Source: Aphelocoma coerulescens
Taxonomy: Eukaryota > Chordata > Aves > Passeriformes > Corvidae
Direction: 5' to 3'
DNA: 64,000 nt
NCBI RefSeq assembly: GCF_041296385.1
Contig: NW_027183514.1
Span: 332,135-396,134, forward strand
Shown: positions 1 to 55,785 of the stretch, piece after piece
Position numbering within the stretch: position 1 is the first letter of the stretch
Layout: each line of letters starts with the position of its first letter
The notes under the pieces: generated by a model
Databases searched by the model: none
What the model was told of the DNA's origin: nothing
The model's input: only the letters and a program-made list of their open reading frames with translations
Translations under genes and position numbers: made by a program

Positions 1-206
1 AGCTCTGAGCACACGCAGCACGGCCCGGGCCCTGCGGGCGCCGGGAGCAGCTGGGCAGGAGCCTTCTGCAAGTGACCGGCGCTTTCTGGCTTCTCTCCCC
101 AGAGTGCCAACATCTGATCCGCTGGTGTTTGTCCAAGCACCCCGCGGACAGGCCAGCGCTGGAGGAGATCTTGCGCCACCCTTGGCTGCGGGGCGGGCGT
201 CTTTGA
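1..206 (+). CDS. PIM1-like: PIM-like serine/threonine kinase, last exon only (gene starts upstream of window)
   Basis: Only the terminal exon is inside the window. Bases 1-102 are the end of the last intron, with a CTTCTCTCCCCAG acceptor; the exon runs 103-206 and stops with TGA at 204-206. It encodes the end of the kinase C-lobe: [10 protein letters not shown], the PxDRP motif as PADRP, and a final HPWLRGGRL. The sequence is identical in type to exon 7 of the complete copies downstream. An AATAAA follows at 270-275. Confidence 0.85.
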
Positions 207-10559: not shown

Positions 10560-10640
10560 GTGAGAGGCGGGGCTGGGATGTCACCCGGCTGTCCTGGCCC
10601 ACAGCACTGTGACATCACCGCGCAGTCGCTATGTAACACG
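10560..10640 (+). promoter_or_regulatory. Candidate promoter of kinase gene with paired CRE-like sites, copy 1
   Basis: About 35-110 bases before the kinase ATG lie a GC box (GAGGCGGGGC), a CRE-like GATGTCACC at 10578-10586 and, in the opposite orientation, GTGACATCACC at 10609-10619, then CTATGTAA. TGACATCA differs by one base from the consensus CRE TGACGTCA. No transcription start can be fixed from sequence alone. Confidence 0.4.
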
Positions 10641-10672
10641 GGCCAGCACCTGCAGCTGCCAGTGCAGTCGCG

Positions 10673-13600
10673 ATGGGACGTGCCGGAGCCATGTGTGACG
10701 GTGTTGTCCCAGTGATTGTGCTTGTCCTGCTGTTGGCCGCTGTGGCTGTCTGGTGGGCCGTTGGCCACTGGCAACCACGGAGGCGGCAGACAAGGACAGC
10801 GAAGAGGCGCAAGCGCCCCGGGGTGCAGCCCAGAGGCTCACGGAGGAAGCGAGGAGCCTCTGCGGCTCCCAGGTCCTCCAGGCCTCGGGCCACCCCTCGC
10901 AAGCGGCCACGTGCTCCCGCGAGCCCCCTGGACAGCCCCTGCAGCTGCGGCCCCTGCGTGGCAGTGGCCCAGGAGCTGCAGGAACTGATGCTGCTGCTCT
11001 GGGCTCGCAATGGGACATGGGTGCCGCTCTACTCTGGGATGTGGCAGGCCTTGTGGAAAGAACTGGAGGAGCTGCTGAAGCGAGGCCACCTGCCCTGCTG
11101 TGGCTCGGCCAGCTCCTCCAGGAGCCTCCATCCCTTCAAGAGGCTGCTCCCAGCAAGATTCTCCATCCCTGGGAGAGCCTCAAGCCTTGCAAGGATGGCA
11201 CACCATCAGAGAGCCGCCATCCAGGCAAGAAGCTCAGGCTGTCAGAGATCCTCCATCCCGCCAGGAGCGTCCGCTATCTCTGACAGCCTCCATCGCCCGC
11301 AGACGCTCCGTGAGACCTGCAGTCAGCCTGCAGAAAGTGCAGAGCCTGTGCACAGGTCTCCCAGCTCCCTTGGACTCATGGACTTCAACAACACGGGCAC
11401 AACCCTGACAACTGACGTTGCCAGGGAAAGCCCAGAAGTCCAAGTGGGAGCCCAGCCCCATCCAGGGGAGCCTTGTCAGGAGCAGGTGCTGGAGCAGCGA
11501 GTGAGCTGGAGCCAGCAGTTGCCGGCCCACAGCTCCCAGGACGCTGTGCCGGCTGCGCCAGCTGGCAACAGCTCTTGCCTGGTGGCGGAGACGAGCCTCA
11601 AGACACCCAGGAGGTTCCTCCATCTCCAGGAAGCTGCTCCGAGACGGCCACCGACAACCAGGAAGGCCTTGCTGGTAGCAGGTGAGATCTGAGGAGCTCT
11701 CTGAGGCTCCCTTGGGGCTCTTGAGGGGCATCCCCAGGCCAGGCCAGGGCCCTTGAGAGCAGCCGAGTCCCTGGCTGTTTCCAGTGCTTCTGATGCCACA
11801 GCTTCAAAAAACCCCTCTCTGGTTTGCAGCTGCTCCTGACACCCCCCTGTGCGAGTCCTCGGGCTGTAGCCCCGGCAGTCCTCAAGAGCAGAGTCCAGCC
11901 CACGACGCCGGGGACAGCGACGGTGCCGCCCTGCCCCGCTGCCCTCCGGCTCCTGCAGCCGCCTCTGCGCGCTCCCCTGCCCCAGCTCTGGCGCTCGCCA
12001 GCCCGACGGCTGCAAGGCGGTGGCCGCTGCCCGGCGCGCAGCAGGAAGCAGGTCAGAGCAAGGTGGCCCGCGGTGGCTCGGCCCGCTTCACTCGCGGGCA
12101 CTTGGCCGGGGGGGCCCTGGGCGCAAGGCTGATGGCTCGGTCTCGGTCGCAGGGCAAAAGAAGAAGCTGCAGGAGCTGTACCAGCTGGGCCCGCAGCTGG
12201 GCAGCGGTGGCTTCGGCACCGTTTTCTCGGGCATCCGCCTCTCGGACGGGAGCCCGGTAAGTGGCCGGGACGGCGGGGCGCGGGACGAGGGCCAGGGGCG
12301 GGGCAGGGCTTGAGCTCAGCCCCGTCTCTCGTGGGCTTGCAGGTGGCCATCAAACGCGTGGCCCGGGAGAGCGTGGTGCAGTGGTACGAGCTGGTGAGTG
12401 AGCGAGCGGGGCCACGGCGCCAGAGCGCCAGAGCGGGGCGTGGCGGGCAGGGATAAGGCCGGGCCCCGAGGGCGGGAGGCGGCGCAGGGCGGGGGGAGCG
12501 GGCGTGGGCTCAGCGTGCGAGCCGGAGCAGGGCGGGCCCGGGGATGCCAAACACCGGTGGTGGGGCCGGGCAGGGGGGCACCCCCCAAGCATCCCCTGGG
12601 CGGGAGGAAGCCCAAGCACCAGGGAGGCTGCCCAAGGGGGCACTGGGGCATCCCAGGCACGGGGCAGCACAGCAGCCCCAGGGCAGCATCAGGCCTGCTG
12701 GAGGCACTGTCTCCTCCCCACAGCCCGACGGCACCCGCGTTCCCATGGAGATTGTGCTCATGGAGAAGGTGGGCTCTGGCTGCCACAACATCATCCAGCT
12801 CCTCGACTGGTTTGAGCTGCCTGACAGCTTCCTGCTGGTCATGGAGCGTCCGGAGTCATCGCAGGATCTCCTGGACTTCCTGCTGGAGCAGGGCTTCCTG
12901 CGCGAGGAGATGGCGCGCTGGCTTTTCTGCCAGGTGCTGGAGGCCGTGCGGCACTGCACCGCCTGCGGCGTCCTGCACCGGGACATCAAGCCGGAGAACC
13001 TCCTCGTGGACCCGGAGAGTGGCGACCTGAAGCTCATCGACTTCGGTTGCGGCACCTTCCTCCAGGAGCAGGCCTTCACGCAATTTGCCGGTGAGCCCAC
13101 AGGCCGGGCCCCGCTCCCAGTGCCAGGCACTGCACGGCCCCGTTCCCTCCTGGGCTGCGGGCTGCGGCATTCAGCCGGCTGCCGGCTGCCCTTTGGCACG
13201 GGCCAGATGCTGTGCCCCAGGAGCCGGCTGCCGGCCCTGCCCACAGAGGGGGGCTGCCAAAGCCAGGCCCCGGCCGCTCGGCTTGGCAGGCCCGCAAGGG
13301 CTTGGGCTGCTCCGCTGGCCTTGTCTGCCTTGCAGAACGGTTTCCTGGCTTTGGCCAATTGGCTGGGGGACGGCGGCTGGCCCCGGGGGGAAGTTGTGGC
13401 CACTGGTGCAGCCCCTGCTTCTGCCAGGAGGCTGGCACCAGGCTCTGGAAGGCAGCAGCCTGCGCCTGGACAGCGCCGCCTGTGTCCCCTAGGAACACAC
13501 CTGTACAGCCCACCCGAGTGGATCTGCCTTGGCTGCTACCACGGCCATTCGGCGACCATCTGGTCCCTGGGCGTGCTGCTGTACGTCATGGTCTGCGGGA

Positions 13601-14100
13601 ACGAGCCCTTCCAGGACGACCGTGGCATCGTGTCGGGGCAGCTCTTCTTCTGGCAGCAGGTCTCTCCAGGTTGGTGTCCGGCCTCAAGAAGGCAGGCTTT
13701 GGCAGATGGCACCGCGCAGCCCAGCGTGGCCCTCACGCAGCTCCGCGGGAGGTCGATCTGCCCTCAAGGGCTGGCCGCAGGCGGCGGCCCGTGACCACGG
13801 TGGGGTCGGTGTGGCCCGCTTGGCTGCAGGAGGTGGTGCGTGTCCTGCCGTGCCGCTGTCCCGCAAAGGGCAGAGTCAGCCGGGAGGCCGGCACAGCTCT
13901 GAGCACACGCAGCACGGCCCGGGCCCTGCGGGCGCCGGGAGCAGCTGGGCAGGAGCCTTCTGCAAGTGACCGGCGCTTTCTGGCTTCTCTCCCCAGAGTG
14001 CCAACATCTGATCCGCTGGTGTTTGTCCAAGCACCCCGCGGACAGGCCAGCGCTGGAGGAGATCTTGCGCCACCCTTGGCTGCGGGGCGGGCGTCTTTGA
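10673..14100 (+). CDS. PIM1-like: PIM-like serine/threonine kinase with predicted N-terminal membrane anchor, copy 1
   Basis: Seven exons with GT/AG introns: 10673-11681, 11830-12051, 12153-12256, 12343-12393, 12724-13090, 13493-13669 and 13997-14100; joined they give 2034 nt, 677 residues and TGA. PIM kinases are constitutively active CAMK-group kinases that promote survival and growth. Residues 11-31 are a hydrophobic segment, followed by an Arg/Lys-rich stretch (36-60) and a low-complexity Ser/Pro-rich region to about 410. Kinase domain: glycine loop LGSGGFGTV (426-434), Lys449 in VAIK, the PIM-type helix-C motif VPMEIVL with Glu471, hinge ERPES with Pro505, catalytic loop HRDIKPEN (547-554), DFG (568-570), SPPEW (590-594) and PADRP (657-661). 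Known PIMs have HRDIKDEN. Intron phases match at every junction, including exon 1 to exon 2, which supports the long N-terminus. A shorter product starting at ATG 11784, just before exon 2, is an alternative. Codon 522 is Arg here and Cys in the other copies. Its exon 7 lies in unit B. Confidence 0.85.
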
Positions 14101-14163: not shown

Positions 14164-14169
14164 AATAAA
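14164..14169 (+). other. Poly(A) signal of kinase copy 1
   Basis: AATAAA 64 bases after the stop codon at 14098-14100. Confidence 0.75.
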
Positions 14170-15446: not shown

Positions 15447-18400
15447 TTAAAAGAATCCTCTAAAAAAATGGGACATTTCAGTGCCCCACTTCAGTTTAAA
15501 CACTTTAAACATGGCATGCCTGCATGTTTCTTCTTTTTTCTTTCCCCTGGATCCTGCATTAGCCTTAAAATCTGCCGGGTAGAGCCGGTAGGGCACTGCA
15601 GCAGTGTAGTGCTTCCAGTCCTTCCCATCTTTGCTGCAACAACCGTGCTCGTCCCGAATGCAGCGCTGGGTGAGCAGAGTGGTCATGTAAACGATGTAGA
15701 AGTAAGGCAGGATGTGCTCAAAGCCACAAGCCAGGCAATAGGCCAGCGAGCCCATCAGGTCTCCCGTGCAGTTGAAATGACGTGCCCAGCCCCAAAAGCC
15801 AGAGGTCATCAGCTTGCTGTAGTGCTTGGGCCCATCCACGGACACGTAGGAGCACTCGATGGACTCCGGCTTCTTCCCCCAGATCCTGCACTTGCCATTG
15901 GTACGACGGAAGAGGTCCTTCTGGTGGTTGGTCATTCTGAAGATGGAATAGCCCAGCAAGCCCAGCATCAAGACCCCTACGGCATGGGCTGTGCACAGCT
16001 GGACAGGCTGGTAAACCAAATACAGACCCTGGGGAGCACAAAAACAATCAGACATTTACTTCCAACAGAGGCTCAGCATGCCAGACCAATTCCTTGACTA
16101 CAGTGGCCCACAACAGACCAGAAGAAAGAGTAGAAAAATCTACTGCAACAGTAAAACTGCAGAAAACTTTCAAAAAACTCTGCATCCAACAGTTTCCTTC
16201 TCTCTTTCTCTCTCCAAAATTGCACTTCTTCCTGAAACAAGAAGAGAGAAGTTGCAAGGATGCAAACCGGACAGAAGGAAAAAGCAAGGAACAAAACACA
16301 AACAAACCACCGCTAACCAAAAGACCCTCAACAAGCAGGAGTAAAAAAAAAAGGAAACGGAAAGGATTTAGAAAAAAAGGAAACCAAAAGGATTCAGAAA
16401 AGTATACAGACACAACAGACAGTGACAGAAAGAGGCACAAAAGAAGGGCAGGAGAGGAAAAGATGTCCAATCTGGGCACGGACAGGAAGCCTTCCTACCC
16501 AGGAATTGTTACAAAGAATGTTGCAAGGATTTCTCAACAGTCAAACCGCCTAGAAACATTTAAGGTGCACATTAACCTGCTGAGAAGAATGTTTGTGCAA
16601 AGTTTCCTTCCTCTTAGCCCAAATCCACAGTGTCCACATTTTTACCTGCAAAGTAGAGAGGGAAGGCAACCAAACACAGTCTCCCCAGCCCAAATACCAT
16701 CCCAAATGATCATGGCAGATAGCAATGGTTTTCAAGTACCAGGCTTCATTCCAAAAGAAGTCCAGAACAAAAATACCCTGCAACAGAATAATTTCACAGT
16801 AATAACAGAGCACTGTCACCAGTTACCCTGTTTAACAGCATCAGCCTAATGTCTGTGCTGCCTTGTGATGTGATCTCACAACTCATTGGTGTTTTTATGT
16901 TAGCACTTCAAAACCAGACGTTTCTGAACACAGTTAGGAAGAACTATCACATAAATACAAGCTATGTGGATACACAATATCTACCTACCTATCTATCTAT
17001 CTACACAGATAAAGCAACAGTAGGATGACTAAGGCAAGTGTACAACTCAAGGACGAACGCTTGGGAAGTGAACTCACAGTTGATCAGCCCAATCTCTCTT
17101 CAGCTTAGAGTCACAGCGTTACAAAGAGGGCCGATAGAGCTCCTATTGAGCAGGCTTCCATTTCCACAGATCAGGCAATAAATCCAAAGAAGTCCCAGCA
17201 CACCATCACTGAATGAGCTTGTTTCAGGCCAGGAAAAAACACTTCATTTTCATTTCCATAGAAGGACTTCTTTTCCTACTTTAATATTAGTTTACTTGCT
17301 AGCTGGTTTCCTAATTTCCTCCTTGGAATTTACCTGAAGGACATTGACAAGGATCATGGAGTTTGTCGCTTCGCCATACAGCTCCTCTTGTTTGGCAGCA
17401 AAGGAAAGGTTGATCAGAGTCCAGGCCACAATCCCAGGGCGCCCACTGAAGAAAGAGCTTGAAATCAAACCACTTCCCTATTCGAGGGTTAAATTCAATC
17501 CCCATCATGTAGTCGTAAAAGAAGTTTCCAGTGAATTTGCTGTAAAACATAAAAAAATTGGAAATGTACAGAGTTCTACACAAATACAGGTAATTACTGC
17601 TCTGACTACACAATTCAGATTAATTTGATGTAGTGATAATAAAAATCATCAAAGCATGTAACGCTGTGCAAGGTAACAGAAGCTGACCCAGCTGAAGTAT
17701 TACATTAATAGACATAAGTTGTAGAGTTTCAGAAGTGCCCGAGTTTACTCTTGCTAACACTTCTGAACAGTCTCACTATTTCTAGGATGGGTGTATCTGT
17801 GACACTGAGGCTGCCAGTCCCATGGTGTGCAGCATGAAACACGGGGGATGGTGCTAGTGAAGCAAAGAACCACTGTCATACACTGGCTCAGCTCTCTCTG
17901 CCAGTGAAATATATTCTGTCATTCAATTGATAGACCCGGTTTTTATTTAACAGTTTTAATCTCGGATTACCTCGTCTTCTCTCATTACTAAAATTCACAT
18001 ACCACTCTTTGGCATTGGGAGGGAAAAAGTAGCCTTTAATCATTGCAAACGTGGACACTGCATATCCCAAGCTATTGGCACACCACAGGAGAGGAATCCA
18101 CTTGTCAAAAATGATGGTAGGTGAGAAGAAGTGGAAGCAAGAAGCATTTGCAAACCAAAGCACATGGGTCATGATCCAGGCCTGAAGTCCATTGATTTTC
18201 ATATTTATTCACGACACCTAAAAGATGAAGAAAAAAAATCGAGTGTTACTGACCCCGCATTACTGCAGCTTTTAATTCACATGGCTATGCACAGAATACA
18301 CAGAAGCTCAATCAAGCGCTCATGAAACAACTTCTCTCTCCTCGTCCTCCCAATTCAATACCTTAAAGCACTTTTCTGAGTGTTCCATTAAACTCTGCTG

Positions 18401-24572: not shown

Positions 24573-27500
24573 ATGGGACGTGCCGGAGCCATGTGTGACG
24601 GTGTTGTCCCAGTGATTGTGCTTGTCCTGCTGTTGGCCGCTGTGGCTGTCTGGTGGGCCGTTGGCCACTGGCAACCACGGAGGCGGCAGACAAGGACAGC
24701 GAAGAGGCGCAAGCGCCCCGGGGTGCAGCCCAGAGGCTCACGGAGGAAGCGAGGAGCCTCTGCGGCTCCCAGGTCCTCCAGGCCTCGGGCCACCCCTCGC
24801 AAGCGGCCACGTGCTCCCGCGAGCCCCCTGGACAGCCCCTGCAGCTGCGGCCCCTGCGTGGCAGTGGCCCAGGAGCTGCAGGAACTGATGCTGCTGCTCT
24901 GGGCTCGCAATGGGACATGGGTGCCGCTCTACTCTGGGATGTGGCAGGCCTTGTGGAAAGAACTGGAGGAGCTGCTGAAGCGAGGCCACCTGCCCTGCTG
25001 TGGCTCGGCCAGCTCCTCCAGGAGCCTCCATCCCTTCAAGAGGCTGCTCCCAGCAAGATTCTCCATCCCTGGGAGAGCCTCAAGCCTTGCAAGGATGGCA
25101 CACCATCAGAGAGCCGCCATCCAGGCAAGAAGCTCAGGCTGTCAGAGATCCTCCATCCCGCCAGGAGCGTCCGCTATCTCTGACAGCCTCCATCGCCCGC
25201 AGACGCTCCGTGAGACCTGCAGTCAGCCTGCAGAAAGTGCAGAGCCTGTGCACAGGTCTCCCAGCTCCCTTGGACTCATGGACTTCAACAACACGGGCAC
25301 AACCCTGACAACTGACGTTGCCAGGGAAAGCCCAGAAGTCCAAGTGGGAGCCCAGCCCGATCCAGGGGAGCCTTGTCAGGAGCAGGTGCTGGAGCAGCGA
25401 GTGAGCTGGAGCCAGCAGTTGCCGGCCCACAGCTCCCAGGACGCTGTGCCGGCTGCGCCAGCTGGCAACAGCTCTTGCCTGGTGGCGGAGACGAGCCTCA
25501 AGACACCCAGGAGGTTCCTCCATCTCCAGGAAGCTGCTCCGAGACGGCCACCGACTACCAGGAAGGCCTTGCTGGTAGCAGGTGAGATCTGAGGAGCTCT
25601 CTGAGGCTCCCTTGGGGCTCTTGAGGGGCATCCCCAGGCCAGGCCAGGGCCCTTGAGAGCAGCCGAGTCCCTGGCTGTTTCCAGTGCTTCTGATGCCACA
25701 GCTTCAAAAAACCCCTCTCTGGTTTGCAGCTGCTCCTGACACCCCCCTGTGCGAGTCCTCGGGCTGTAGCCCCGGCAGTCCTCAAGAGCAGAGTCCAGCC
25801 CACGACGCCGGGGACAGCGACGGTGCCGCCCTGCCCCGCTGCCCTCCGGCTCCTGCAGCCGCCTCTGCGCGCTCCCCTGCCCCAGCTCTGGCGCTCGCCA
25901 GCCCGACGGCTGCAAGGCGGTGGCCGCTGCCCGGCGCGCAGCAGGAAGCAGGTCAGAGCAAGGTGGCCCGCGGTGGCTCGGCCCGCTTCACTCGCGGGCA
26001 CTTGGCCGGGGGGGCCCTGGGCGCAAGGCTGATGGCTCGGTCTCGGTCGCAGGGCAAAAGAAGAAGCTGCAGGAGCTGTACCAGCTGGGCCCGCAGCTGG
26101 GCAGCGGTGGCTTCGGCACCGTTTTCTCGGGCATCCGCCTCTCGGACGGGAGCCCGGTAAGTGGCCGGGACGGCGGGGCGCGGGACGAGGGCCAGGGGCG
26201 GGGCAGGGCTTGAGCTCAGCCCCGTCTCTCGTGGGCTTGCAGGTGGCCATCAAACGCGTGGCCCGGGAGAGCGTGGTGCAGTGGTACGAGCTGGTGAGTG
26301 AGTGAGCGGGGCCACGGCGCCAGAGCGCCAGAGCGGGGCGTGGCGGGCAGGGATAAGGCCGGGCCCCGAGGGCGGGAGGCGGCGCAGGGCGGGGGGAGCG
26401 GGCGTGGGCTCAGCGTGCGAGCCGGAGCAGGGCGGGCCCGGGGATGCCAAACACCGGTGGTGGGGCCGGGCAGGGGGGCACCCCCCAAGCATCCCCTGGG
26501 CGGGAGGAAGCCCAAGCACCAGGGAGGCTGCCCAAGGGGGCACTGGGGCATCCCAGGCACGGGGCAGCACAGCAGCCCCAGGGCAGCATCAGGCCTGCTG
26601 GAGGCACTGTCTCCTCCCCACAGCCCGACGGCACCCGCGTTCCCATGGAGATTGTGCTCATGGAGAAGGTGGGCTCTGGCTGCCACAACATCATCCAGCT
26701 CCTCGACTGGTTTGAGCTGCCTGACAGCTTCCTGCTGGTCATGGAGCGTCCGGAGTCATCGCAGGATCTCCTGGACTTCCTGCTGGAGCAGGGCTTCCTG
26801 TGCGAGGAGATGGCGCGCTGGCTTTTCTGCCAGGTGCTGGAGGCCGTGCGGCACTGCACCGCCTGCGGCGTCCTGCACCGGGACATCAAGCCGGAGAACC
26901 TCCTCGTGGACCCGGAGAGTGGCGACCTGAAGCTCATCGACTTCGGTTGCGGCACCTTCCTCCAGGAGCAGGCCTTCACGCAATTTGCCGGTGAGCCCAC
27001 AGGCCGGGCCCCGCTCCCAGTGCCAGGCACTGCACGGCCCCGTTCCCTCCTGGGCTGCGGGCTGCGGCATTCAGCCGGCTGCCGGCTGCCCTTTGGCACG
27101 GGCCAGATGCTGTGCCCCAGGAGCCGGCTGCCGGCCCTGCCCACAGAGGGGGGCTGCCAAAGCCAGGCCCCGGCCGCTCGGCTTGGCAGGCCCGCAAGGG
27201 CTTGGGCTGCTCCGCTGGCCTTGTCTGCCTTGCAGAACGGTTTCCTGGCTTTGGCCAATTGGCTGGGGGACGGCGGCTGGCCCCGGGGGGAAGTTGTGGC
27301 CACTGGTGCAGCCCCTGCTTCTGCCAGGAGGCTGGCACCAGGCTCTGGAAGGCAGCAGCCTGCGCCTGGACAGCGCCGCCTGTGTCCCCTAGGAACACAC
27401 CTGTACAGCCCACCCGAGTGGATCTGCCTTGGCTGCTACCACGGCCATTCGGCGACCATCTGGTCCCTGGGCGTGCTGCTGTACGTCATGGTCTGCGGGA

Positions 27501-28000
27501 ACGAGCCCTTCCAGGACGACCGTGGCATCGTGTCGGGGCAGCTCTTCTTCTGGCAGCAGGTCTCTCCAGGTTGGTGTCCGGCCTCAAGAAGGCAGGCTTT
27601 GGCAGATGGCACCGCGCAGCCCAGCGTGGCCCTCACGCAGCTCCGCGGGAGGTCGATCTGCCCTCAAGGGCTGGCCGCAGGCGGCGGCCCGTGACCACGG
27701 TGGGGTCGGTGTGGCCCGCTTGGCTGCAGGAGGTGGCGCGTGTCCTGCCGTGCCGCTGTCCCGCAAAGGGCAGAGTCAGCCGGGAGGCCGGCACAGCTCT
27801 GAGCACACGCAGCACGGCCCGGGCCCTGCGGGCGCCGGGAGCAGCTGGGCAGGAGCCTTCTGCAAGTGACCGGCGCTTTCTGGCTTCTCTCCCCAGAGTG
27901 CCAACATCTGATCCGCTGGTGTTTGTCCAAGCACCCCGCGGACAGGCCAGCGCTGGAGGAGATCTTGCGCCACCCTTGGCTGCGGGGCGGGCGTCTTTGA
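24573..28000 (+). CDS. PIM1-like: PIM-like kinase with predicted N-terminal membrane anchor, copy 2
   Basis: Exons 24573-25581, 25730-25951, 26053-26156, 26243-26293, 26624-26990, 27393-27569 and 27897-28000; 677 codons, no frame break. The kinase motifs are identical to copy 1. Coding differences I can see are His-to-Asp in the exon-1 stretch GAQPHPGEP (here GAQPDPGEP) and Cys instead of Arg at codon 522 (TGCGAG at 26801-26806). The donor of intron 4 is followed by GTGAGTGAGTGAG rather than GTGAGTGAGCGAG. Confidence 0.85.
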
Positions 28001-29346: not shown

Positions 29347-32300
29347 TTAAAAGAATCCTCTAAAAAAATGGGACATTTCAGTGCCCCACTTCAGTTTAAA
29401 CACTTTAAACATGGCATGCCTGCATGTTTCTTCTTTTTTCTTTCCCCTGGATCCTGCATTAGCCTTAAAATCTGCCGGGTAGAGCCGGTAGGGCACTGCA
29501 GCAGTGTAGTGCTTCCAGTCCTTCCCATCTTTGCTGCAACAACCGTGCTCGTCCCGAATGCAGCGCTGGGTGAGCAGAGTGGTCATGTAAACGATGTAGA
29601 AGTAAGGCAGGATGTGCTCAAAGCCACAAGCCAGGCAATAGGCCAGCGAGCCCATCAGGTCTCCCGTGCAGTTGAAATGACGTGCCCAGCCCCAAAAGCC
29701 AGAGGTCATCAGCTTGCTGTAGTGCTTGGGCCCATCCACGGACACGTAGGAGCACTCGATGGACTCCGGCTTCTTCCCCCAGATCCTGCACTTGCCATTG
29801 GTACGACGGAAGAGGTCCTTCTGGTGGTTGGTCATTCTGAAGATGGAATAGCCCAGCAAGCCCAGCATCAAGACCCCTACGGCATGGGCTGTGCACAGCT
29901 GGACAGGCTGGTAAACCAAATACAGACCCTGGGGAGCACAAAAACAATCAGACATTTACTTCCAACAGAGGCTCAGCATGCCAGACCAATTCCTCGACTA
30001 CAGTGGCCCACAACAGACCAGAAGAAAGAGTAGAAAAATCTACTGCAACAGTAAAACTGCAGAAAACTTTCAAAAAACTCTGCATCCAACAGTTTCCTTC
30101 TCTCTTTCTCTCTCCAAAATTGCACTTCTTCCTGAAACAAGAAGAGAGAAGTTGCAAGGATGCAAACCGGACAGAAGGAAAAAGCAAGGAACAAAACACA
30201 AACAAACCACTGCTAACCAAAAGACCCTCAACAAGCAGGAGTAAAAAAAAAAAGGAAACGGAAAGGATTTAGAAAAAAAGGAAACCAAAAGGATTCAGAA
30301 AAGTATACAGACACAACAGACAGTGACAGAAAGAGGCACAAAAGAAGGGCAGGAGAGGAAAAGATGTCCAATCTGGGCACGGACAGGAAGCCTTCCTACC
30401 CAGGAATTGTTACAAAGAATGTTGCAAGGATTTCTCAACAGTCAAACCGCCTAGAAACATTTAAGGTGCACATTAACCTGCTGAGAAGAATGTTTCTGCA
30501 AAGTTTCCTTCCTCTTAGCCCAAATCCACAGTGTCCACATTTTTACCTGCAAAGTAGAGAGGGAAGGCAACCAAACACAGTCTCCCCAGCCCAAATACCA
30601 TCCCAAATGATCATGGCAGATAGCAATGGTTTTCAAGTACCAGGCTTCATTCCAAAAGAAGTCCAGAACAAAAATACCCTGCAACAGAATAATTTCACAG
30701 TAATAACAGAGCACTGTCACCAGTTACCCTGTTTAACAGCATCAGCCTAATGTCTGTGCTGCCTTGTGATGTGATCTCACAACTCATTGGTGTTTTTATG
30801 TTAGCACTTCAAAACCAGACGTTTCTGAACACAGTTAGGAAGAACTATCACATAAATACAAGCTATGTGGATACACAATATCTACCTACCTATCTATCTA
30901 TCTACACAGATAAAGCAACAGTAGGATGACTAAGGCAAGTGTACAACTCAAGGACGAACGCTTGGGAAGTGAACTCACAGTTGATCAGCCCAATCTCTCT
31001 TCAGCTTAGAGTCACAGCGTTACAAAGAGGGCCGATAGAGCTCCTATTGAGCAGGCTTCCATTTCCACAGATCAGGCAATAAATCCAAAGAAGTCCCAGC
31101 ACACCATCACTGAATGAGCTTGTTTCAGGCCAGGAAAAAACACTTCATTTTCATTTCCATAGAAGGACTTCTTTTCCTACTTTAATATTAGTTTACTTGC
31201 TAGCTGGTTTCCTAATTTCCTCCTTGGAATTTACCTGAAGGACATTGACAAGGATCATGGAGTTTGTCGCTTCGCCATACAGCTCCTCTTGTTTGGCAGC
31301 AAAGGAAAGGTTGATCAGAGTCCAGGCCACAATCCCAGGGCGCCCACTGAAGAAAGAGCTTGAAATCAAACCACTTCCCTATTCGAGGGTTAAATTCAAT
31401 CCCCATCATGTAGTCGTAAAAGAAGTTTCCAGTGAATTTGCTGTAAAACATAAAAAAATTGGAAATGTACAGAGTTCTACACAAATACAGGTAATTACTG
31501 CTCTGACTACACAATTCAGATTAATTTGATGTAGTGATAATAAAAATCATCAAAGCATGTAACGCTGTGCAAGGTAACAGAAGCTGACCCAGCTGAAGTA
31601 TTACATTAATAGACATAAGTTGTAGAGTTTCAGAAGTGCCCGAGTTTACTCTTGCTAACACTTCTGAACAGTCTCACTATTTCTAGGATGGGTGTATCTG
31701 TGACACTGAGGCTGCCAGTCCCATGGTGTGCAGCATGAAACACGGGGGATGGTGCTAGTGAAGCAAAGAACCACTGTCATACACTGGCTCAGCTCTCTCT
31801 GCCAGTGAAATATATTCTGTCATTCAATTGATAGACCCGGTTTTTATTTAACAGTTTTAATCTCTGATTACCTCGTCTTCTCTCATTACTAAAATTCACA
31901 TACCACTCTTTGGCATTGGGAGGGAAAAAGTAGCCTTTAATCATTGCAAACGTGGACACTGCATATCCCAAGCTATTGGCACACCACAGGAGAGGAATCC
32001 ACTTGTCAAAAATGATGGTAGGTGAGAAGAAGTGGAAGCAAGAAGCATTTGCAAACCAAAGCACATGGGTCATGATCCAGGCCTGAAGTCCATTGATTTT
32101 CATATTTATTCACGACACCTAAAAGATGAAGAAAAAAAATCGAGTGTTACTGACCCCGCATTACTGCAGCTTTTAATTCACATGGCTATGCACAGAATAC
32201 ACAGAAGCTCAATCAAGCGCTCATGAAACAACTTCTCTCTCCTCGTCCTCCCAATTCAATACCTTAAAGCACTTTTCTGAGTGTTCCATTAAACTCTGCT

Positions 32301-38466: not shown

Positions 38467-41400
38467 ATGGGACATGCCGGAGCCATGTGTGACGGTGTTG
38501 TCCCAGTGATTGTGCTTGTCCTGCTGCTGGCCGCTGTGGCTGTCTGGTGGGCCGTTGGCCACTGGCAACCACGGAGGCGGCAGACAAGGACAGCGAAGAG
38601 GCGCAAGCGCCCCGGGGTGCAGCCCAGAGGCTCACGGAGGAAGCGAGGAGCCCCTGCGGCTCCCAGGTCCTCCAGGCCTCGGGCCACCCCTCGCAAGCGG
38701 CCACGTGCTCCCGCGAGCCCCCTGGACAGCCCCTGCAGCTGCGGCCCCTGCGTGGCAGTGGCCCAGGAGCTGCAGGAACTGATGCTGCTGCTCTGGGCTC
38801 GCAATGGGACATGGGTGCCGCTCTACTCTGGGATGTGGCAGGCCTTGTGGAAAGAACTGGAGGAGCTGCTGAAGCGAGGCCACCTGCCCTGCTGTGGCTC
38901 GGCCAGCTCCTCCAGGAGCCTCCATCCCTTCAAGAGGCTGCTCCCAGCAAGATTCTCCATCCCTGGGAGAGCCTCAAGCCTTGCAAGGATGGCACACCAT
39001 CAGAGAGCCGCCATCCAGGCAAGAAGCTCAGGCTGTCAGAGATCCTCCATCCCGCCAGGAGCGTCCGCTATCTCTGACAGCCTCCATCGCCCGCAGACGC
39101 TCCATGAGACCTGCAGTCAGCCTGCAGAAAGTGCAGAGCCTGTGCACAGGTCTCCCAGCTCCCTTGGACTCATGGACTTCAACAACACGGGCACAACCCT
39201 GACAACTGACGTTGCCAGGGAAAGCCCAGAAGTCCAAGTGGGAGACCAGCCCCATCCAGGGGAGCCTTGTCAGGAGCAGGTGCTGGAGCAGCGAGTGAGC
39301 TGGAGCCAGCAGTTGCCGGCCCACAGCTCCCAGGACGCTGTGCCGGCTGCGCCAGCTGGCAACAGCTCTTGCCTGGTGGCGGAGACGAGCCTCAAGACAC
39401 CCAGGAGGTTCCTCCATCTCCAGGAAGCTGCTCCGAGACGGCCACCGACTACCAGGAAGGCCTTGCTGGTAGCAGGTGAGATCTGAGGAGCTCTCTGAGG
39501 CTCCCTTGGGGCTCTTGAGGGGCATCCGCAGGCCAGGCCAGGGCCCTTGAGAGCAGCCGAGTCCCTGGCTGTTTCCAGTGCTTCTGATGCCACAGCTTCA
39601 AAAAACCCCTCTCTGGTTTGCAGCTGCTCCTGACACCCCCCTGTGCGAGTCCTCGGGCTGTAGCCCCGGCAGTCCTCAAGAGCAGAGTCCAGCCCACGAC
39701 GCCGGGGACAGCGACGGTGCCGCCCTGCCCCGCTGCCCTCCGGCTCCTGCAGCCGCCTCTGCGCGCTCCCCTGCCCCAGCTCTGGCGCTCGCCAGCCCGA
39801 CGGCTGCAAGGCGGTGGCCGCTGCCCGGCGCGCAGCAGGAAGCAGGTCAGAGCAAGGTGGCCCGCGGTGGCTCGGCCCGCTTCACTCGCGGGCACTTGGC
39901 CGGGGGGGCCCTGGGCGCAAGGCTGATGGCTCGGTCTCGGTCGCAGGGCAAAAGAAGAAGCTGCAGGAGCTGTACCAGCTGGGCCCGCAGCTGGGCAGCG
40001 GTGGCTTCGGCACCGTTTTCTCGGGCATCCGCCTCTCGGACGGGAGCCCGGTAAGTGGCCGGGACGGCGGGGCGCGGGACGAGGGCCAGGGGCGGGGCAG
40101 GGCTTGAGCTCAGCCCCGTCTCTCGTGGGCTTGCAGGTGGCCATCAAACGCGTGGCCCGGGAGAGCGTGGTGCAGTGGTACGAGCTGGTGAGTGAGTGAG
40201 CGGGGCCACGGCGCCAGAGCGCCAGAGCGGGGCGTGGCGGGCAGGGATAAGGCCGGGCCCCGAGGGCGGGAGGCGGCGCAGGGCGGGGGGAGCGGGCGTG
40301 GGCTCAGCGTGCGAGCCGGAGCAGGGCGGGCCCGGGGATGCCAAACACCGGTGGTGGGGCCGGGCAGGGGGGCACCCCCCAAGCATCCCCTGGGCGGGAG
40401 GAAGCCCAAGCACCAGGGAGGCTGCCCAAGGGGGCACTGGGGCATCCCAGGCACGGGGCAGCACAGCAGCCCCAGGGCAGCATCAGGCCTGCTGGAGGCA
40501 CTGTCTCCTCCCCACAGCCCGACGGCACCCGCGTTCCCATGGAGATTGTGCTCATGGAGAAGGTGGGCTCTGGCTGCCACAACATCATCCAGCTCCTCGA
40601 CTGGTTTGAGCTGCCTGACAGCTTCCTGCTGGTCATGGAGCGTCCGGAGTCATCGCAGGATCTCCTGGACTTCCTGCTGGAGCAGGGCTTCCTGTGCGAG
40701 GAGATGGCGCGCTGGCTTTTCTGCCAGGTGCTGGAGGCCGTGCGGCACTGCACCGCCTGCGGCGTCCTGCACCGGGACATCAAGCCGGAGAACCTCCTCG
40801 TGGACCCGGAGAGTGGCGACCTGAAGCTCATCGACTTCGGTTGCGGCACCTTCCTCCAGGAGCAGGCCTTCACGCAATTTGCCGGTGAGCCCACAGGCCG
40901 GGCCCCGCTCCCAGTGCCAGGCACTGCACGGCCCCGTTCCCTCCTGGGCTGCGGGCTGCGGCATTCAGCCGGCTGCCGGCTGCCCTTTGGCACGGGCCAG
41001 ATGCTGTGCCCCAGGAGCCGGCTGCCGGCCCTGCCCACAGAGGGGGGCTGCCAAAGCCAGGCCCCGGCCGCTCGGCTTGGCAGGCCCGCAAGGGCTTGGG
41101 CTGCTCCGCTGGCCTTGTCTGCCTTGCAGAACGGTTTCCTGGCTTTGGCCAATTGGCTGGGGGACGGCGGCTGGCCCCGGGGGGGAAGTTGTGGCCACTG
41201 GTGCAGCCCCTGCTTCTGCCAGGAGGCTGGCACCAGGCTCTGGAAGGCAGCAGCCTGCGCCTGGACAGCGCCGCCTGTGTCCCCTAGGAACACACCTGTA
41301 CAGCCCACCCGAGTGGATCTGCCTTGGCTGCTACCACGGCCATTCGGCGACCATCTGGTCCCTGGGCGTGCTGCTGTACGTCATGGTCTGCGGGAACGAG

Positions 41401-41895
41401 CCCTTCCAGGACGACCGTGGCATCGTGTCGGGGCAGCTCTTCTTCTGGCAGCAGGTCTCTCCAGGTTGGTGTCCGGCCTCAAGAAGGCAGGCTTTGGCAG
41501 ATGGCACCGCGCAGCCCAGCGTGGCCCTCACGCAGCTCCGCGGGAGGTCGATCTGCCCTCAAGGGCTGGCCGCAGGCGGCGGCCCGTGACCACGGTGGGG
41601 TCGGTGTGGCCCGCTTGGCTGCAGGAGGTGGCGCGTGTCCTGCCGTGCCGCTGTCCCGCAAAGGGCAGAGTCAGCCGGGAGGCCGGCACAGCTCTGAGCA
41701 CACGCAGCACGGCCCGGGCCCTGCGGGCGCCGGGAGCAGCTGGGCAGGAGCCTTCTGCAAGTGACCGGCGCTTTCTGGCTTCTCTCCCCAGAGTGCCAAC
41801 ATCTGATCCGCTGGTGTTTGTCCAAGCACCCCGCGGACAGGCCAGCGCTGGAGGAGATCTTGCGCCACCCTTGGCTGCGGGGCGGGCGTCTTTGA
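38467..41895 (+). CDS. PIM1-like: PIM-like kinase with predicted N-terminal membrane anchor, copy 3
   Basis: Exons 38467-39475, 39624-39845, 39947-40050, 40137-40187, 40518-40884, 41288-41464 and 41792-41895; 677 codons, uninterrupted. Differences from copy 1: Arg3 to His, Ser63 to Pro, Arg to His in the exon-1 motif TLRETC (TLHETC), GAQPH to GDQPH, and Arg522 to Cys. Intron 5 has seven instead of six G in its G run, which only matters if the intron is retained. The glycine loop, Lys449, HRDIKPEN and DFG are intact. Confidence 0.85.
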
Positions 41896-52356: not shown

Positions 52357-55300
52357 ATGGGACGTGCCGGAGCCATGTGTGACGGTGTTGTCCCAGTGAT
52401 TGTGCTTGTCCTGCTGCTGGCCGCTGTGGCTGTCTGGTGGGCCGTTGGCCACTGGCAACCACGGAGGCGGCAGACAAGGACAGCGAAGAGGCGCAAGCGC
52501 CCCGGGGTGCAGCCCAGAGGCTCACGGAGGAAGCGAGGAGCCCCTGCGGCTCCCAGGTCCTCCAGGCCTCGGGCCACCCCTCGCAAGCGGCCACGTGCTC
52601 CCGCGAGCCCCCTGGACAGCCCCTGCAGCTGCGGCCCCTGCGTGGCAGTGGCCCAGGAGCTGCAGGAACTGATGCTGCTGCTCTGGGCTCGCAATGGGAC
52701 ATGGGTGCCGCTCTACTCTGGGATGTGGCAGGCCTTGTGGAAAGAACTGGAGGAGCTGCTGAAGCGAGGCCACCTGCCCTGCTGTGGCTCGGCCAGCTCC
52801 TCCAGGAGCCTCCATCCCTTCAAGAGGCTGCTCCCAGCAAGATTCTCCATCCCTGGGAGAGCCTCAAGCCTTGCAAGGATGGCACACCATCAGAGAGCCG
52901 CCATCCAGGCAAGAAGCTCAGGCTGTCAGAGATCCTCCATCCCGCCAGGAGCGTCCGCTATCTCTGACAGCCTCCATCGCCCGCAGACGCTCCATGAGAC
53001 CTGCAGTCAGCCTGCAGAAAGTGCAGAGCCTGTGCACAGGTCTCCCAGCTCCCTTGGACTCATGGACTTCAACAACACGGGCACAACCCTGACAACTGAC
53101 GTTGCCAGGGAAAGCCCAGAAGTCCAAGTGGGAGACCAGCCCCATCCAGGGGAGCCTTGTCAGGAGCAGGTGCTGGAGCAGCGAGTGAGCTGGAGCCAGC
53201 AGTTGCCGGCCCACAGCTCCCAGGACGCTGTGCCGGCTGCGCCAGCTGGCAACAGCTCTTGCCTGGTGGCGGAGACGAGCCTCAAGACACCCAGGAGGTT
53301 CCTCCATCTCCAGGAAGCTGCTCCGAGACGGCCACCGACTACCAGGAAGGCCTTGCTGGTAGCAGGTGAGATCTGAGGAGCTCTCTGAGGCTCCCTTGGG
53401 GCTCTTGAGGGGCATCCGCAGGCCAGGCCAGGGCCCTTGAGAGCAGCCGAGTCCCTGGCTGTTTCCAGTGCTTCTGATGCCACAGCTTCAAAAAACCCCT
53501 CTCTGGTTTGCAGCTGCTCCTGACACCCCCCTGTGCGAGTCCTCGGGCTGTAGCCCCGGCAGTCCTCAAGAGCAGAGTCCAGCCCACGACGCCGGGGACA
53601 GCGACGGTGCCGCCCTGCCCCGCTGCCCTCCGGCTCCTGCAGCCGCCTCTGCGCGCTCCCCTGCCCCAGCTCTGGCGCTCGCCAGCCCGACGGCTGCAAG
53701 GCGGTGGCCGCTGCCCGGCGCGCAGCAGGAAGCAGGTCAGAGCAAGGTGGCCCGCGGTGGCTCGGCCCGCTTCACTCGCGGGCACTTGGCCGGGGGGGCC
53801 CTGGGCGCAAGGCTGATGGCTCGGTCTCGGTCGCAGGGCAAAAGAAGAAGCTGCAGGAGCTGTACCAGCTGGGCCCGCAGCTGGGCAGCGGTGGCTTCGG
53901 CACCGTTTTCTCGGGCATCCGCCTCTCGGACGGGAGCCCGGTAAGTGGCCGGGACGGCGGGGCGCGGGACGAGGGCCAGGGGCGGGGCAGGGCTTGAGCT
54001 CAGCCCCGTCTCTCGTGGGCTTGCAGGTGGCCATCAAACGCGTGGCCCGGGAGAGCGTGGTGCAGTGGTACGAGCTGGTGAGTGAGTGAGCGGGGCCACG
54101 GCGCCAGAGCGCCAGAGCGGGGCGTGGCGGGCAGGGATAAGGCCGGGCCCCGAGGGCGGGAGGCGGCGCAGGGCGGGGGGAGCGGGCGTGGGCTCAGCGT
54201 GCGAGCCGGAGCAGGGCGGGCCCGGGGATGCCAAACACCGGTGGTGGGGCCGGGCAGGGGGGCACCCCCCAAGCATCCCCTGGGCGGGAGGAAGCCCAAG
54301 CACCAGGGAGGCTGCCCAAGGGGGCACTGGGGCATCCCAGGCACGGGGCAGCACAGCAGCCCCAGGGCAGCATCAGGCCTGCTGGAGGCACTGTCTCCTC
54401 CCCACAGCCCGACGGCACCCGCGTTCCCATGGAGATTGTGCTCATGGAGAAGGTGGGCTCTGGCTGCCACAACATCATCCAGCTCCTCGACTGGTTTGAG
54501 CTGCCTGACAGCTTCCTGCTGGTCATGGAGCGTCCGGAGTCATCGCAGGATCTCCTGGACTTCCTGCTGGAGCAGGGCTTCCTGTGCGAGGAGATGGCGC
54601 GCTGGCTTTTCTGCCAGGTGCTGGAGGCCGTGCGGCACTGCACCGCCTGCGGCGTCCTGCACCGGGACATCAAGCCGGAGAACCTCCTCGTGGACCCGGA
54701 GAGTGGCGACCTGAAGCTCATCGACTTCGGTTGCGGCACCTTCCTCCAGGAGCAGGCCTTCACGCAATTTGCCGGTGAGCCCACAGGCCGGGCCCCGCTC
54801 CCAGTGCCAGGCACTGCACGGCCCCGTTCCCTCCTGGGCTGCGGGCTGCGGCATTCAGCCGGCTGCCGGCTGCCCTTTGGCACGGGCCAGATGCTGTGCC
54901 CCAGGAGCCGGCTGCCGGCCCTGCCCACAGAGGGGGGCTGCCAAAGCCAGGCCCCGGCCGCTCGGCTTGGCAGGCCCGCAAGGGCTTGGGCTGCTCCGCT
55001 GGCCTTGTCTGCCTTGCAGAACGGTTTCCTGGCTTTGGCCAATTGGCTGGGGGACGGCGGCTGGCCCCGGGGGGGAAGTTGTGGCCACTGGTGCAGCCCC
55101 TGCTTCTGCCAGGAGGCTGGCACCAGGCTCTGGAAGGCAGCAGCCTGCGCCTGGACAGCGCCGCCTGTGTCCCCTAGGAACACACCTGTACAGCCCACCC
55201 GAGTGGATCTGCCTTGGCTGCTACCACGGCCATTCGGCGACCATCTGGTCCCTGGGCGTGCTGCTGTACGTCATGGTCTGCGGGAACGAGCCCTTCCAGG

Positions 55301-55785
55301 ACGACCGTGGCATCGTGTCGGGGCAGCTCTTCTTCTGGCAGCAGGTCTCTCCAGGTTGGTGTCCGGCCTCAAGAAGGCAGGCTTTGGCAGATGGCACCGC
55401 GCAGCCCAGCGTGGCCCTCACGCAGCTCCGCGGGAGGTCGATCTGCCCTCAAGGGCTGGCCGCAGGCGGCGGCCCGTGACCACGGTGGGGTCGGTGTGGC
55501 CCGCTTGGCTGCAGGAGGTGGCGCGTGTCCTGCCGTGCCGCTGTCCCGCAAAGGGCAGAGTCAGCCGGGAGGCCGGCACAGCTCTGAGCACACGCAGCAC
55601 GGCCCGGGCCCTGCGGGCGCCGGGAGCAGCTGGGCAGGAGCCTTCTGCAAGTGACCGGCGCTTTCTGGCTTCTCTCCCCAGAGTGCCAACATCTGATCCG
55701 CTGGTGTTTGTCCAAGCACCCCGCGGACAGGCCAGCGCTGGAGGAGATCTTGCGCCACCCTTGGCTGCGGGGCGGGCGTCTTTGA
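52357..55785 (+). CDS. PIM1-like: PIM-like kinase with predicted N-terminal membrane anchor, copy 4
   Basis: Exons 52357-53365, 53514-53735, 53837-53940, 54027-54077, 54408-54774, 55178-55354 and 55682-55785; 677 codons, uninterrupted. It shares Pro63, TLHETC, GDQPH and Cys522 with copy 3 but keeps Arg3 like copies 1 and 2, and it has the seven-G intron 5. Copies 3 and 4 are thus the closest pair in the kinase region. Confidence 0.85.

What the first reader, a model, noticed from the sequence alone, without database searches (positions are those of the whole stretch)
10673..14100. PIM-like kinase with a predicted membrane-anchor N-terminus
Known PIM kinases are soluble and start close to the kinase domain. 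Here the long first exon opens with about ten residues, then a ~21-residue hydrophobic segment (residues 11-31), then many Arg/Lys (36-60), about 350 low-complexity residues, and then the kinase domain. Exon 1 joins exon 2 in phase (one base plus two), and the frame is open in all four copies. The charge distribution would place the kinase in the cytosol. If correct, this is a membrane-tethered PIM kinase.
Basis: partly seen in the sequence, partly recalled or inferred. Interest (0 to 1): 0.75.

Follow-up and report, generated by a model that had tools for sequence, protein, structure and literature searches.

The report
Songbird PIM kinase with membrane anchor
A kinase gene repeated in tandem in a songbird genome appears to carry a built-in membrane anchor in front of its PIM kinase domain, and the same anchor is found in the matching genes of many other songbirds, which suggests that songbirds evolved a membrane-tethered branch of a kinase family usually thought of as soluble.

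Summary
The anatomy is real. Seven GT-AG exons (10673-14100) give a 677-residue protein in all four full copies of a ~13.9-kb tandem unit. Residues 11-31 are the only strongly hydrophobic stretch before the kinase; a basic stretch follows, and an intact PIM1-type kinase lies at ~411-673.

"Open in four copies" proves little: the units are ~99.7% identical. Other species are the better evidence. 67 of 151 listed homologue clusters keep the N-terminal segment; net charge is 0 or less before it in 66 of 67 and +6 or more after it in 63 of 67. Fifteen of 120 listed hits align over 95% or more of the protein at 56-81% identity. Changes inside the segment avoid strongly polar residues (2 of 40 states against 20-27% expected, one out-of-register model dropped).

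Best reading: an N-out/C-in anchor holds a cytosolic PIM kinase on a membrane in an amplified songbird PIM1-like clade. Two premises need correcting: human PIM-1L is already reported as membrane-directed, by a different route, and the linker holds a conserved, predicted helical hairpin. Expression and membrane insertion are untested here.

The parts
10673..11681 (+). copy 1, exon 1: N-tail (aa 1-10), hydrophobic anchor (aa 11-31, nt 10703-10765), basic stretch, Cys-containing helical module (aa ~88-145), disordered linker
   Evidence: splice model; hydropathy and charge; predicted helices 11-31, 93-112, 121-136 (mean pLDDT 42.9)
11830..12051 (+). copy 1, exon 2 (222 nt, phase 1 at both ends, so it could be skipped in frame)
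   Evidence: the joined sequence AAAPxxP occurs in 25 of 151 homologue models (pattern match), and 20 of 151 match an exon1-to-exon3-type join pattern (P0017, P0032 and P0051 match both, so the second pattern is loose)
12153..12256 (+). copy 1, exon 3: start of kinase domain, glycine-rich loop
   Evidence: PIM1 alignment from residue 411
12343..12393 (+). copy 1, exon 4 (51 nt, symmetric): holds the catalytic VAIK lysine K449
   Evidence: absent from 7 of 151 homologue models by pattern match
12724..13090 (+). copy 1, exon 5: hinge ERPE, HRD (547-549), DFG (568-570)
13493..13669 (+). copy 1, exon 6: C-lobe
13997..14100 (+). copy 1, exon 7 with stop codon; polyadenylation-like AATAAA at 14164
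24573..28000 (+). copy 2 of the gene, same seven exons
   Evidence: differs from copy 1 at aa 263 and 522
38467..41895 (+). copy 3 of the gene
   Evidence: differs from copy 1 at aa 3, 63, 213, 260, 522
52357..55785 (+). copy 4 of the gene
   Evidence: differs from copy 1 at aa 63, 213, 260, 522
103..206 (+). last exon of a further, cut-off upstream copy
   Evidence: exon-7 acceptor, stop and polyA marks also at 93, 194, 266
10563..10672 (+). putative promoter/5' leader: GC box, TGACATCA at 10610, ATG-TAA at 10631-10636 (the TAA is also the upstream in-frame stop)
   Evidence: role inferred only; TGACATCA occurs twice per unit, so it is not significant by itself

Best explanation
This is an amplified songbird PIM1-like gene whose ordinary PIM1 first exon has been replaced by two songbird-specific exons. 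Translation starts at 10673. Residues 11-31 act as an uncleaved reverse signal-anchor: the ~10-residue neutral or acidic N-tail crosses the membrane, and the basic stretch from residue 36 holds the rest in the cytosol. The flexible linker, with a Cys-containing helical hairpin at 88-145 that may bind a partner, then presents a constitutively active PIM-type kinase along the membrane face. Anchoring would concentrate a kinase that in the PIM family is set mainly by its abundance (recalled) on membrane-proximal, Arg/Lys-rich substrates. Shown: sequence anatomy, conservation, intact catalytic residues. Inferred: start site, insertion, topology, which membrane, activity, function.
For: Splice model open in 4 of 4 copies with all GT-AG introns. 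PIM1 match 385 bits, E 5.7e-114, gap-free over 411-673, against 286 bits for PIM2. Equivalents of PIM1 K67, E89, P123, D128, D131, HRD, E171 and DFG all kept; D170 is Pro. N-terminal segment in 67 of 151 listed clusters; N flank net 0 to -2 in 66 of 67, C flank +6 or more in 63 of 67, 19-residue hydropathy 2.0 or more in 66 of 67. In columns 12-30, 2 of 40 changed states are strongly polar against 20-27% expected from the window's codons, p 0.0004-0.008 by transition bias, P0107 excluded. Full-length homologues (coverage 95% or more) are 15 of the 120 listed hits (297 found), e.g. zebra finch, swamp sparrow, indigobird, canary. Exon-1 profile search: 94 hits, 77 with a named source by my count, all oscine songbirds as I read the names. 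Kinase tree of 71 rows: a group of 52 rows, window included, split at 100/100 from 19 rows of canonical or other bird PIM1 and human PIM1; anchor in 23 of the 52 and 0 of the 19. Helix 11-31 predicted and 10-31 in the Melospiza homologue P0008, both at low confidence.
Against: No transcript or peptide was seen. 20 of 151 models use other starts in exon 1 that omit the anchor, including the Corvus kubaryi cluster of 27 sequences starting at Met106. The constraint test is weaker if P0107 is kept and 11-31 is used (8 of 55, p 0.09), and the basic stretch shows no constraint by the same measure (71 of 159, p 0.42). One homologue, P0098, has Asp inside the segment and a net -5 flank after it. Variation among the four copies does not look purifying (6 replacement, 2 silent sites in the CDS). 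Five corvid models (P0054, P0060, P0145-P0147) keep the anchor but leave exon 1 near residue 50, so the hairpin and most of the linker may be optional. Structure confidence is low (mean pLDDT 42.9; 34.5). Homologue DNA could not be obtained, so there is no dN/dS across species.
Confidence: 0.7

Rival explanations
1. The real product starts at an internal methionine (Met106 or Met175) or from another first exon, so the kinase is soluble, and the hydrophobic codons belong to a 5' leader or a minor isoform.
For: 20 of 151 listed models start at Met106, Met175 or in another frame of exon 1; Met175 has a good start context (A at -3, G at +4).
Against: The hydrophobic codons keep hydrophobic character across songbirds, and 67 of 151 models include them. 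Met1 has G at -3 and G at +4, and Met106 has C at both. The models were gathered by similarity to an anchor-bearing query, so their counts are not a vote.
Confidence: 0.15
2. Residues 11-25 are a cleaved signal peptide (A23-V24-A25 fits the -3,-1 rule), giving a secreted or lumenal kinase.
For: Length and the Ala-Val-Ala motif are compatible (sequence; rule recalled).
Against: The N-tail has no net positive charge in 66 of 67 clusters, and the stretch after the segment is +6 or more in 63 of 67, which opposes translocation. The segment stays hydrophobic to residue 30. Position 23 varies to T or V and position 25 to V (states; P0133).
Confidence: 0.06
3. The array is a satellite-like or pseudogene-like amplification with no functional protein; open frames only reflect recent copying.
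For: Units ~99.7% identical; replacement changes not depleted among copies. Some public models from such arrays are plainly artefacts (P0001).
Against: Catalytic residues intact; 15 of 120 listed homologues, from several songbird families, align over 95% or more of the protein at 56-81% identity, which recent copying inside one genome cannot produce.
Confidence: 0.09

Closest known systems
Zebra finch PIM1-like (PIM1L) kinase family of Kong et al. 2010 (paper not held; contents recalled, seen only as cited in PMC4377847, PMC4373106, PMC10172847, PMC13060935)
   Same: Multiplied PIM1-derived kinase genes of songbirds; the retrieved zebra finch proteins P0010, P0011, P0012, P0018 and P0025 align along the whole 677 residues.
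   Different: I found no description of a transmembrane first exon in the held literature; some public models carry names such as 'calcium-dependent protein kinase 27-like' or 'myosin light chain kinase 3-like'. The original paper could not be read, so it may mention the N-terminus.
Human PIM-1L (44 kDa isoform)
   Same: PIM1 kinase with an N-terminal extension that brings it to the membrane (PMC4640547, abstract and passages).
   Different: Made from an upstream CUG of the ordinary gene and described as attached through a proline-rich motif, not a transmembrane helix. The PDB comparison aligns the songbird protein to PIM1 chains only from residue 409 on; few of those chains hold the long extension.
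Canonical avian PIM1
   Same: Kinase domain, catalytic residues, hinge proline.
   Different: Starts with MLLSKI... and a ~30-residue leader (P0101, P0117); none of the 19 rows on that side of the kinase tree has the hydrophobic segment.
Zebra finch PAK3-like (PAK3L) arrays
   Same: Another songbird kinase family in ampliconic arrays (PMC13060935, passages).
   Different: PAK3L is described as lacking the 5' exons for the N-terminal regulatory domain; the PIM1-like genes here carry extra N-terminal exons.

Membership tests
PIM kinase family | Best sequence match of the kinase domain is a PIM kinase | tested here: met
   PIM1 385 bits, PIM2 286 bits, next PASK 128 bits
PIM kinase family | Hinge proline (PIM1 P123) | tested here: met
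   P505; described as unique to the PIM family in a figure legend of PMC10380471
PIM kinase family | Catalytic K, E, HRD, DFG | tested here: met
   K449, E471, H547-R548-D549, D568-F569-G570
PIM kinase family | Acidic residues that read basic substrates (PIM1 D128, D131, E171; recalled) | tested here: met
   D510, D513, E553; the neighbouring D170 is P552
PIM kinase family | Kinase activity without activation-loop phosphorylation | not testable with these tools
   needs assay
PIM kinase family | Protein is essentially a kinase domain only, soluble (typical rather than defining) | tested here: not met
   410 residues precede the kinase, with a predicted membrane segment; PIM-1L also deviates
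Songbird PIM1-like (PIM1L) clade | Kinase domain groups with songbird multi-copy PIM1-like proteins, apart from canonical PIM1 | tested here: met
   100/100 split, 52 against 19 rows; PIM2 and PIM3 were not in the tree, and the Kong et al. sequences themselves were not compared
N-out/C-in single-pass anchor (reverse signal-anchor) | ~20 uncharged hydrophobic residues near the N-terminus | tested here: met
   no dedicated predictor was run
N-out/C-in single-pass anchor (reverse signal-anchor) | More positive charge after the segment than before it | tested here: met
   63 of 67 clusters with +6 or more after it, 66 of 67 with 0 or less before it
N-out/C-in single-pass anchor (reverse signal-anchor) | Not cleaved by signal peptidase | tested here: inconclusive
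   A23-V24-A25 fits the -3,-1 rule (recalled); no predictor run
N-out/C-in single-pass anchor (reverse signal-anchor) | Actual membrane insertion | not testable with these tools
   needs carbonate extraction or protease protection
PIM-1L type extension | Upstream CUG start and proline-rich membrane motif homologous to PIM1 | tested here: inconclusive
   extension has a well-placed ATG at 10673 and aligned to PDB PIM1 chains only from residue 409 on, but a human PIM-1L extension was not compared directly

The most novel reading that the evidence does not exclude
By replacing the first exon of PIM1, songbirds founded a whole amplified clade of transmembrane PIM kinases. Its members carry a conserved Cys-containing helical hairpin next to the membrane, and symmetric exon 4 can be skipped to give catalytically dead decoys (models lacking the VAIK lysine in 7 of 151 clusters). 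Array copy number would then set the membrane dose of a constitutive kinase.
Probability: 0.4. Interest if true: 0.72.

Novelty: new variant of a known kind. Interest (0 to 1): 0.55.

Why it matters
PIM kinases are constitutively active and are studied mainly as soluble survival kinases. A lineage that fixed one of them to a membrane by changing its first exon, and then multiplied it into tandem arrays, is a natural experiment in how location changes the output of an always-on kinase. It also gives concrete meaning to a songbird kinase family that public databases partly label under unrelated names, and it offers simple tests: tag it, fractionate it, delete residues 11-31.

Tried and rejected
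Tests that led nowhere: whole-genome search (no genome held); DNA of homologues in bacterial/archaeal genome contigs (111 pattern matches, none confirmed; viral contigs were not scanned); Pfam and PDB profile searches with the 16-row exon-1 alignment (no convincing family: one member matches Pkinase at 0.00054, otherwise the best E-value is 0.013, PhoR, in 7 of 16 members; 0 PDB chains up to E 1); full-length structure model of P0008 (mean pLDDT 34.5, kinase not folded, so I drew nothing from it about docking). No fold search was run because both models were too uncertain. A search for a crow 14-kb satellite paper listed nothing relevant in its top 15 (paper not held).

Considered and rejected: that openness in four copies supports the frame (units too alike); that TGACATCA at 10610 marks a promoter by itself (two per unit); that models in another frame of exon 1 show dual coding (6 of 151 models; in the window that frame's ORF starts at GTG, not ATG). 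My first constraint count included P0107, whose sequence leaves register after residue 23; I report both counts. The label set in the tree call was incomplete (19 rows); one search recounted 22 plus the window.

Rows dropped or not seen before a count: one search listed 120 of 297 hits, so the 151 clusters are the listed part only; kinase domains with a best match spanning 240 residues or less were left out of the tree, as were P0150 and P0151; P0150 and P0151 came.

Full report
WHAT IS THERE. The window is about 4.6 copies of a ~13.9-kb tandem unit (unit lengths 13894, 13900, 13895, 13890). The four units compared differ at 38 aligned sites plus 21 gap columns. Each full unit holds one seven-exon gene on the + strand; copy 1 lies at 10673-14100. 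All introns are GT-AG, phases agree, and the protein is 677 residues in 4 of 4 copies. A polyadenylation-like AATAAA follows the stop. The closest kinase domain is in an Aphelocoma coerulescens (Florida scrub-jay) model that strings three kinase copies together, with one stretch at 99.6% identity over 223 residues (P0001); it also pairs with the window in the tree (100/98). The source is therefore likely a New World jay (inference).

THE KINASE. Residues 411-673 align without gaps to human PIM1 (385 bits, E 5.7e-114; PIM2 286 bits). Equivalents of K67, E89, P123, D128, D131, HRD, E171 and DFG are conserved; D170 is proline. In a tree of 71 kinase domains, 52 rows form a songbird PIM1-like group split at 100/100 from 19 rows: canonical and other bird PIM1 (among them owl, loon, frogmouth, shearwater, pigeon and two songbird PIM1 proteins) plus human PIM1.

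THE ANCHOR. Residues 11-31 ([21 protein letters not shown]) have a peak hydropathy of 2.78; the best window after residue 40 is 1.36, in the kinase. The N-tail is neutral and residues 32-60 carry net +14. A biological-scale sum (values recalled) is negative (-1.7 for residues 12-30). AlphaFold2 on the window's exon 1 predicts helices at 11-31, 93-112 and 121-136 in an otherwise unstructured chain, at low confidence (mean pLDDT 42.9). By the positive-inside rule (established knowledge) this predicts an N-out/C-in anchor with a cytosolic kinase.

IS IT MORE THAN ONE GENOME'S ACCIDENT? Yes. Of 151 protein clusters listed by three searches (one search listed 120 of 297 hits; two searches listed 61 and 94), 67 carry the segment; 66 of 67 have net charge 0 or less before it and 63 of 67 have +6 or more after it. 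Exceptions after it are P0098 (-5), P0072 (+1), P0055 (+4) and P0107 (+4). Fifteen of 120 listed hits cover 95% or more of the full protein at 56-81% identity. Segment identity between the window and the nine homologues compared is 67-76% for the anchor, 78-88% for residues 87-145, 68-73% for 146-336 and 83-88% for the kinase. In the anchor the changes are mostly among hydrophobic residues. In columns 12-30, dropping P0107 (which leaves register after residue 23), 2 of 40 changed states are strongly polar against 20-27% expected from single-base changes of the window's codons (p 0.0004-0.008). For 11-31 the result is 4 of 48 (p 0.001-0.02). With P0107 kept it is 8 of 55 (p 0.09), and the basic stretch shows no such bias (71 of 159 against 46% expected, p 0.42). 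States are not independent events, so these p-values are indicative only. All named hits of the exon-1 profile search (77 of 94 by my count; 17 lack names) are oscine songbirds as I read the names. The search cannot exclude unsampled birds.

WHERE DID IT COME FROM? Ordinary bird PIM1 starts MLLSKI... and reaches the kinase after about 30 residues (P0101, P0117). Here two different exons replace that leader, and the kinase begins at exon 3. The simplest history is first-exon replacement in a PIM1 copy in the songbird lineage, followed by amplification (inference). No source for exon 1 was found in Pfam or the PDB.

ISOFORMS. Exon 2 (222 nt) and exon 4 (51 nt) are symmetric. Exon 4 encodes the catalytic lysine; 7 of 151 models lack it by pattern match and would be pseudokinases. 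Starts at Met106 (4 models), Met175 (10) or in another frame of exon 1 (6) also occur; 64 further models fall in none of these classes, among them ordinary PIM1 and kinase-only fragments. Five corvid models (P0054, P0060, P0145-P0147) keep the anchor but leave exon 1 near residue 50, which would bring the kinase close to the membrane without the hairpin. Whether any of these are real transcripts or prediction artefacts cannot be told here.

HOW IT MOST LIKELY WORKS. PIM kinases need no activating phosphorylation, so dose and place determine output (recalled). Fixing the kinase to a membrane through a long flexible linker would restrict it to membrane-proximal basic motifs. The conserved hairpin region with its CSCGPC and PCC cysteines next to the membrane could bind a receptor tail or be acylated (speculation). 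[quoted passage not shown] Shown: anatomy, conservation, intact active site. Inferred: start site, insertion, topology, activity, tissue.

WHAT IS KNOWN. The PIM1-like expansion in zebra finch is published (Kong et al. 2010; not held; cited in papers seen as passages). Against a songbird-wide expansion, the 2015 canary genome paper says it failed to find the PIM1L expansion in canary (PMC4373106, passage); two canary proteins (P0031, P0083) do nevertheless appear among the hits here, P0031 with the anchor. PIM1 is listed among known avian multicopy genes, present on both the germline-restricted and the ordinary chromosomes of the blue tit (PMC10172847, passage). pim1 and pim3 paralogues on the zebra finch germline-restricted chromosome are reported to show purifying selection (PMC9508068, passage). 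A blackbird transcriptome lists 'Serine/threonine-protein kinase pim-1' among the five most expressed genes of its 14-tissue pool, which included testicle (PMC5732540, passages); which PIM gene that is cannot be told. The Florida scrub-jay genome paper has no mention of 'kinase' in its main text (PMC11631490, term search). My searches for a transmembrane or songbird PIM (listings only beyond the passages named) showed no description of a transmembrane PIM, in a library limited to openly licensed papers.

VERDICT. Observation confirmed; interpretation supported in its core, with the reasoning corrected. A new variant of a known kind, decided by simple experiments.

Noticed in passing
window 1-64000: The whole window is a ~13.9-kb tandem array (units ~99.7% identical). 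From memory, a ~14-kb satellite is reported in crows; that paper was not held, so whether this is the same repeat is open.
   Followed up: partly
1553-2161, 15447-16055, 29347-29955, 43242-43850, 57132-57740 (- strand): Each unit carries an open frame matching the C-terminal part of sterol reductases (Pfam ERG4_ERG24, E 2.2e-40 for the first copy), resembling DHCR7 (recalled); probably a gene fragment or last exon carried along with the array.
   Followed up: partly
12343-12393 and equivalents: Symmetric exon 4 holds the catalytic lysine; 7 of 151 homologue models lack it by pattern match (P0018, P0019, P0037, P0060, P0087, P0145, P0146), predicting kinase-dead forms.
   Followed up: partly
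10631-10636 and equivalents: An ATG immediately followed by TAA (start-stop) ends 36 nt upstream of the predicted start codon in all four copies; it could act as a minimal upstream ORF if transcribed.
   Followed up: no
homologues P0032, P0037, P0039, P0056, P0083, P0089: Six songbird gene models read another frame of exon 1 before entering the kinase frame; likely prediction artefacts, but that frame is open for 176 codons in the window (10753-11283).
   Followed up: partly
P0001 (Aphelocoma coerulescens model): A public gene model joins three kinase copies into one 814-residue protein, an annotation artefact of tandem arrays.
   Followed up: yes
P0038, P0053, P0108, P0111, P0112, P0114, P0116, P0118, P0119, P0120 (Bubo scandiacus): Snowy owl has its own group of PIM1-like proteins (10 rows, 100/100) without the anchor, an apparently independent PIM expansion.
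   Followed up: no
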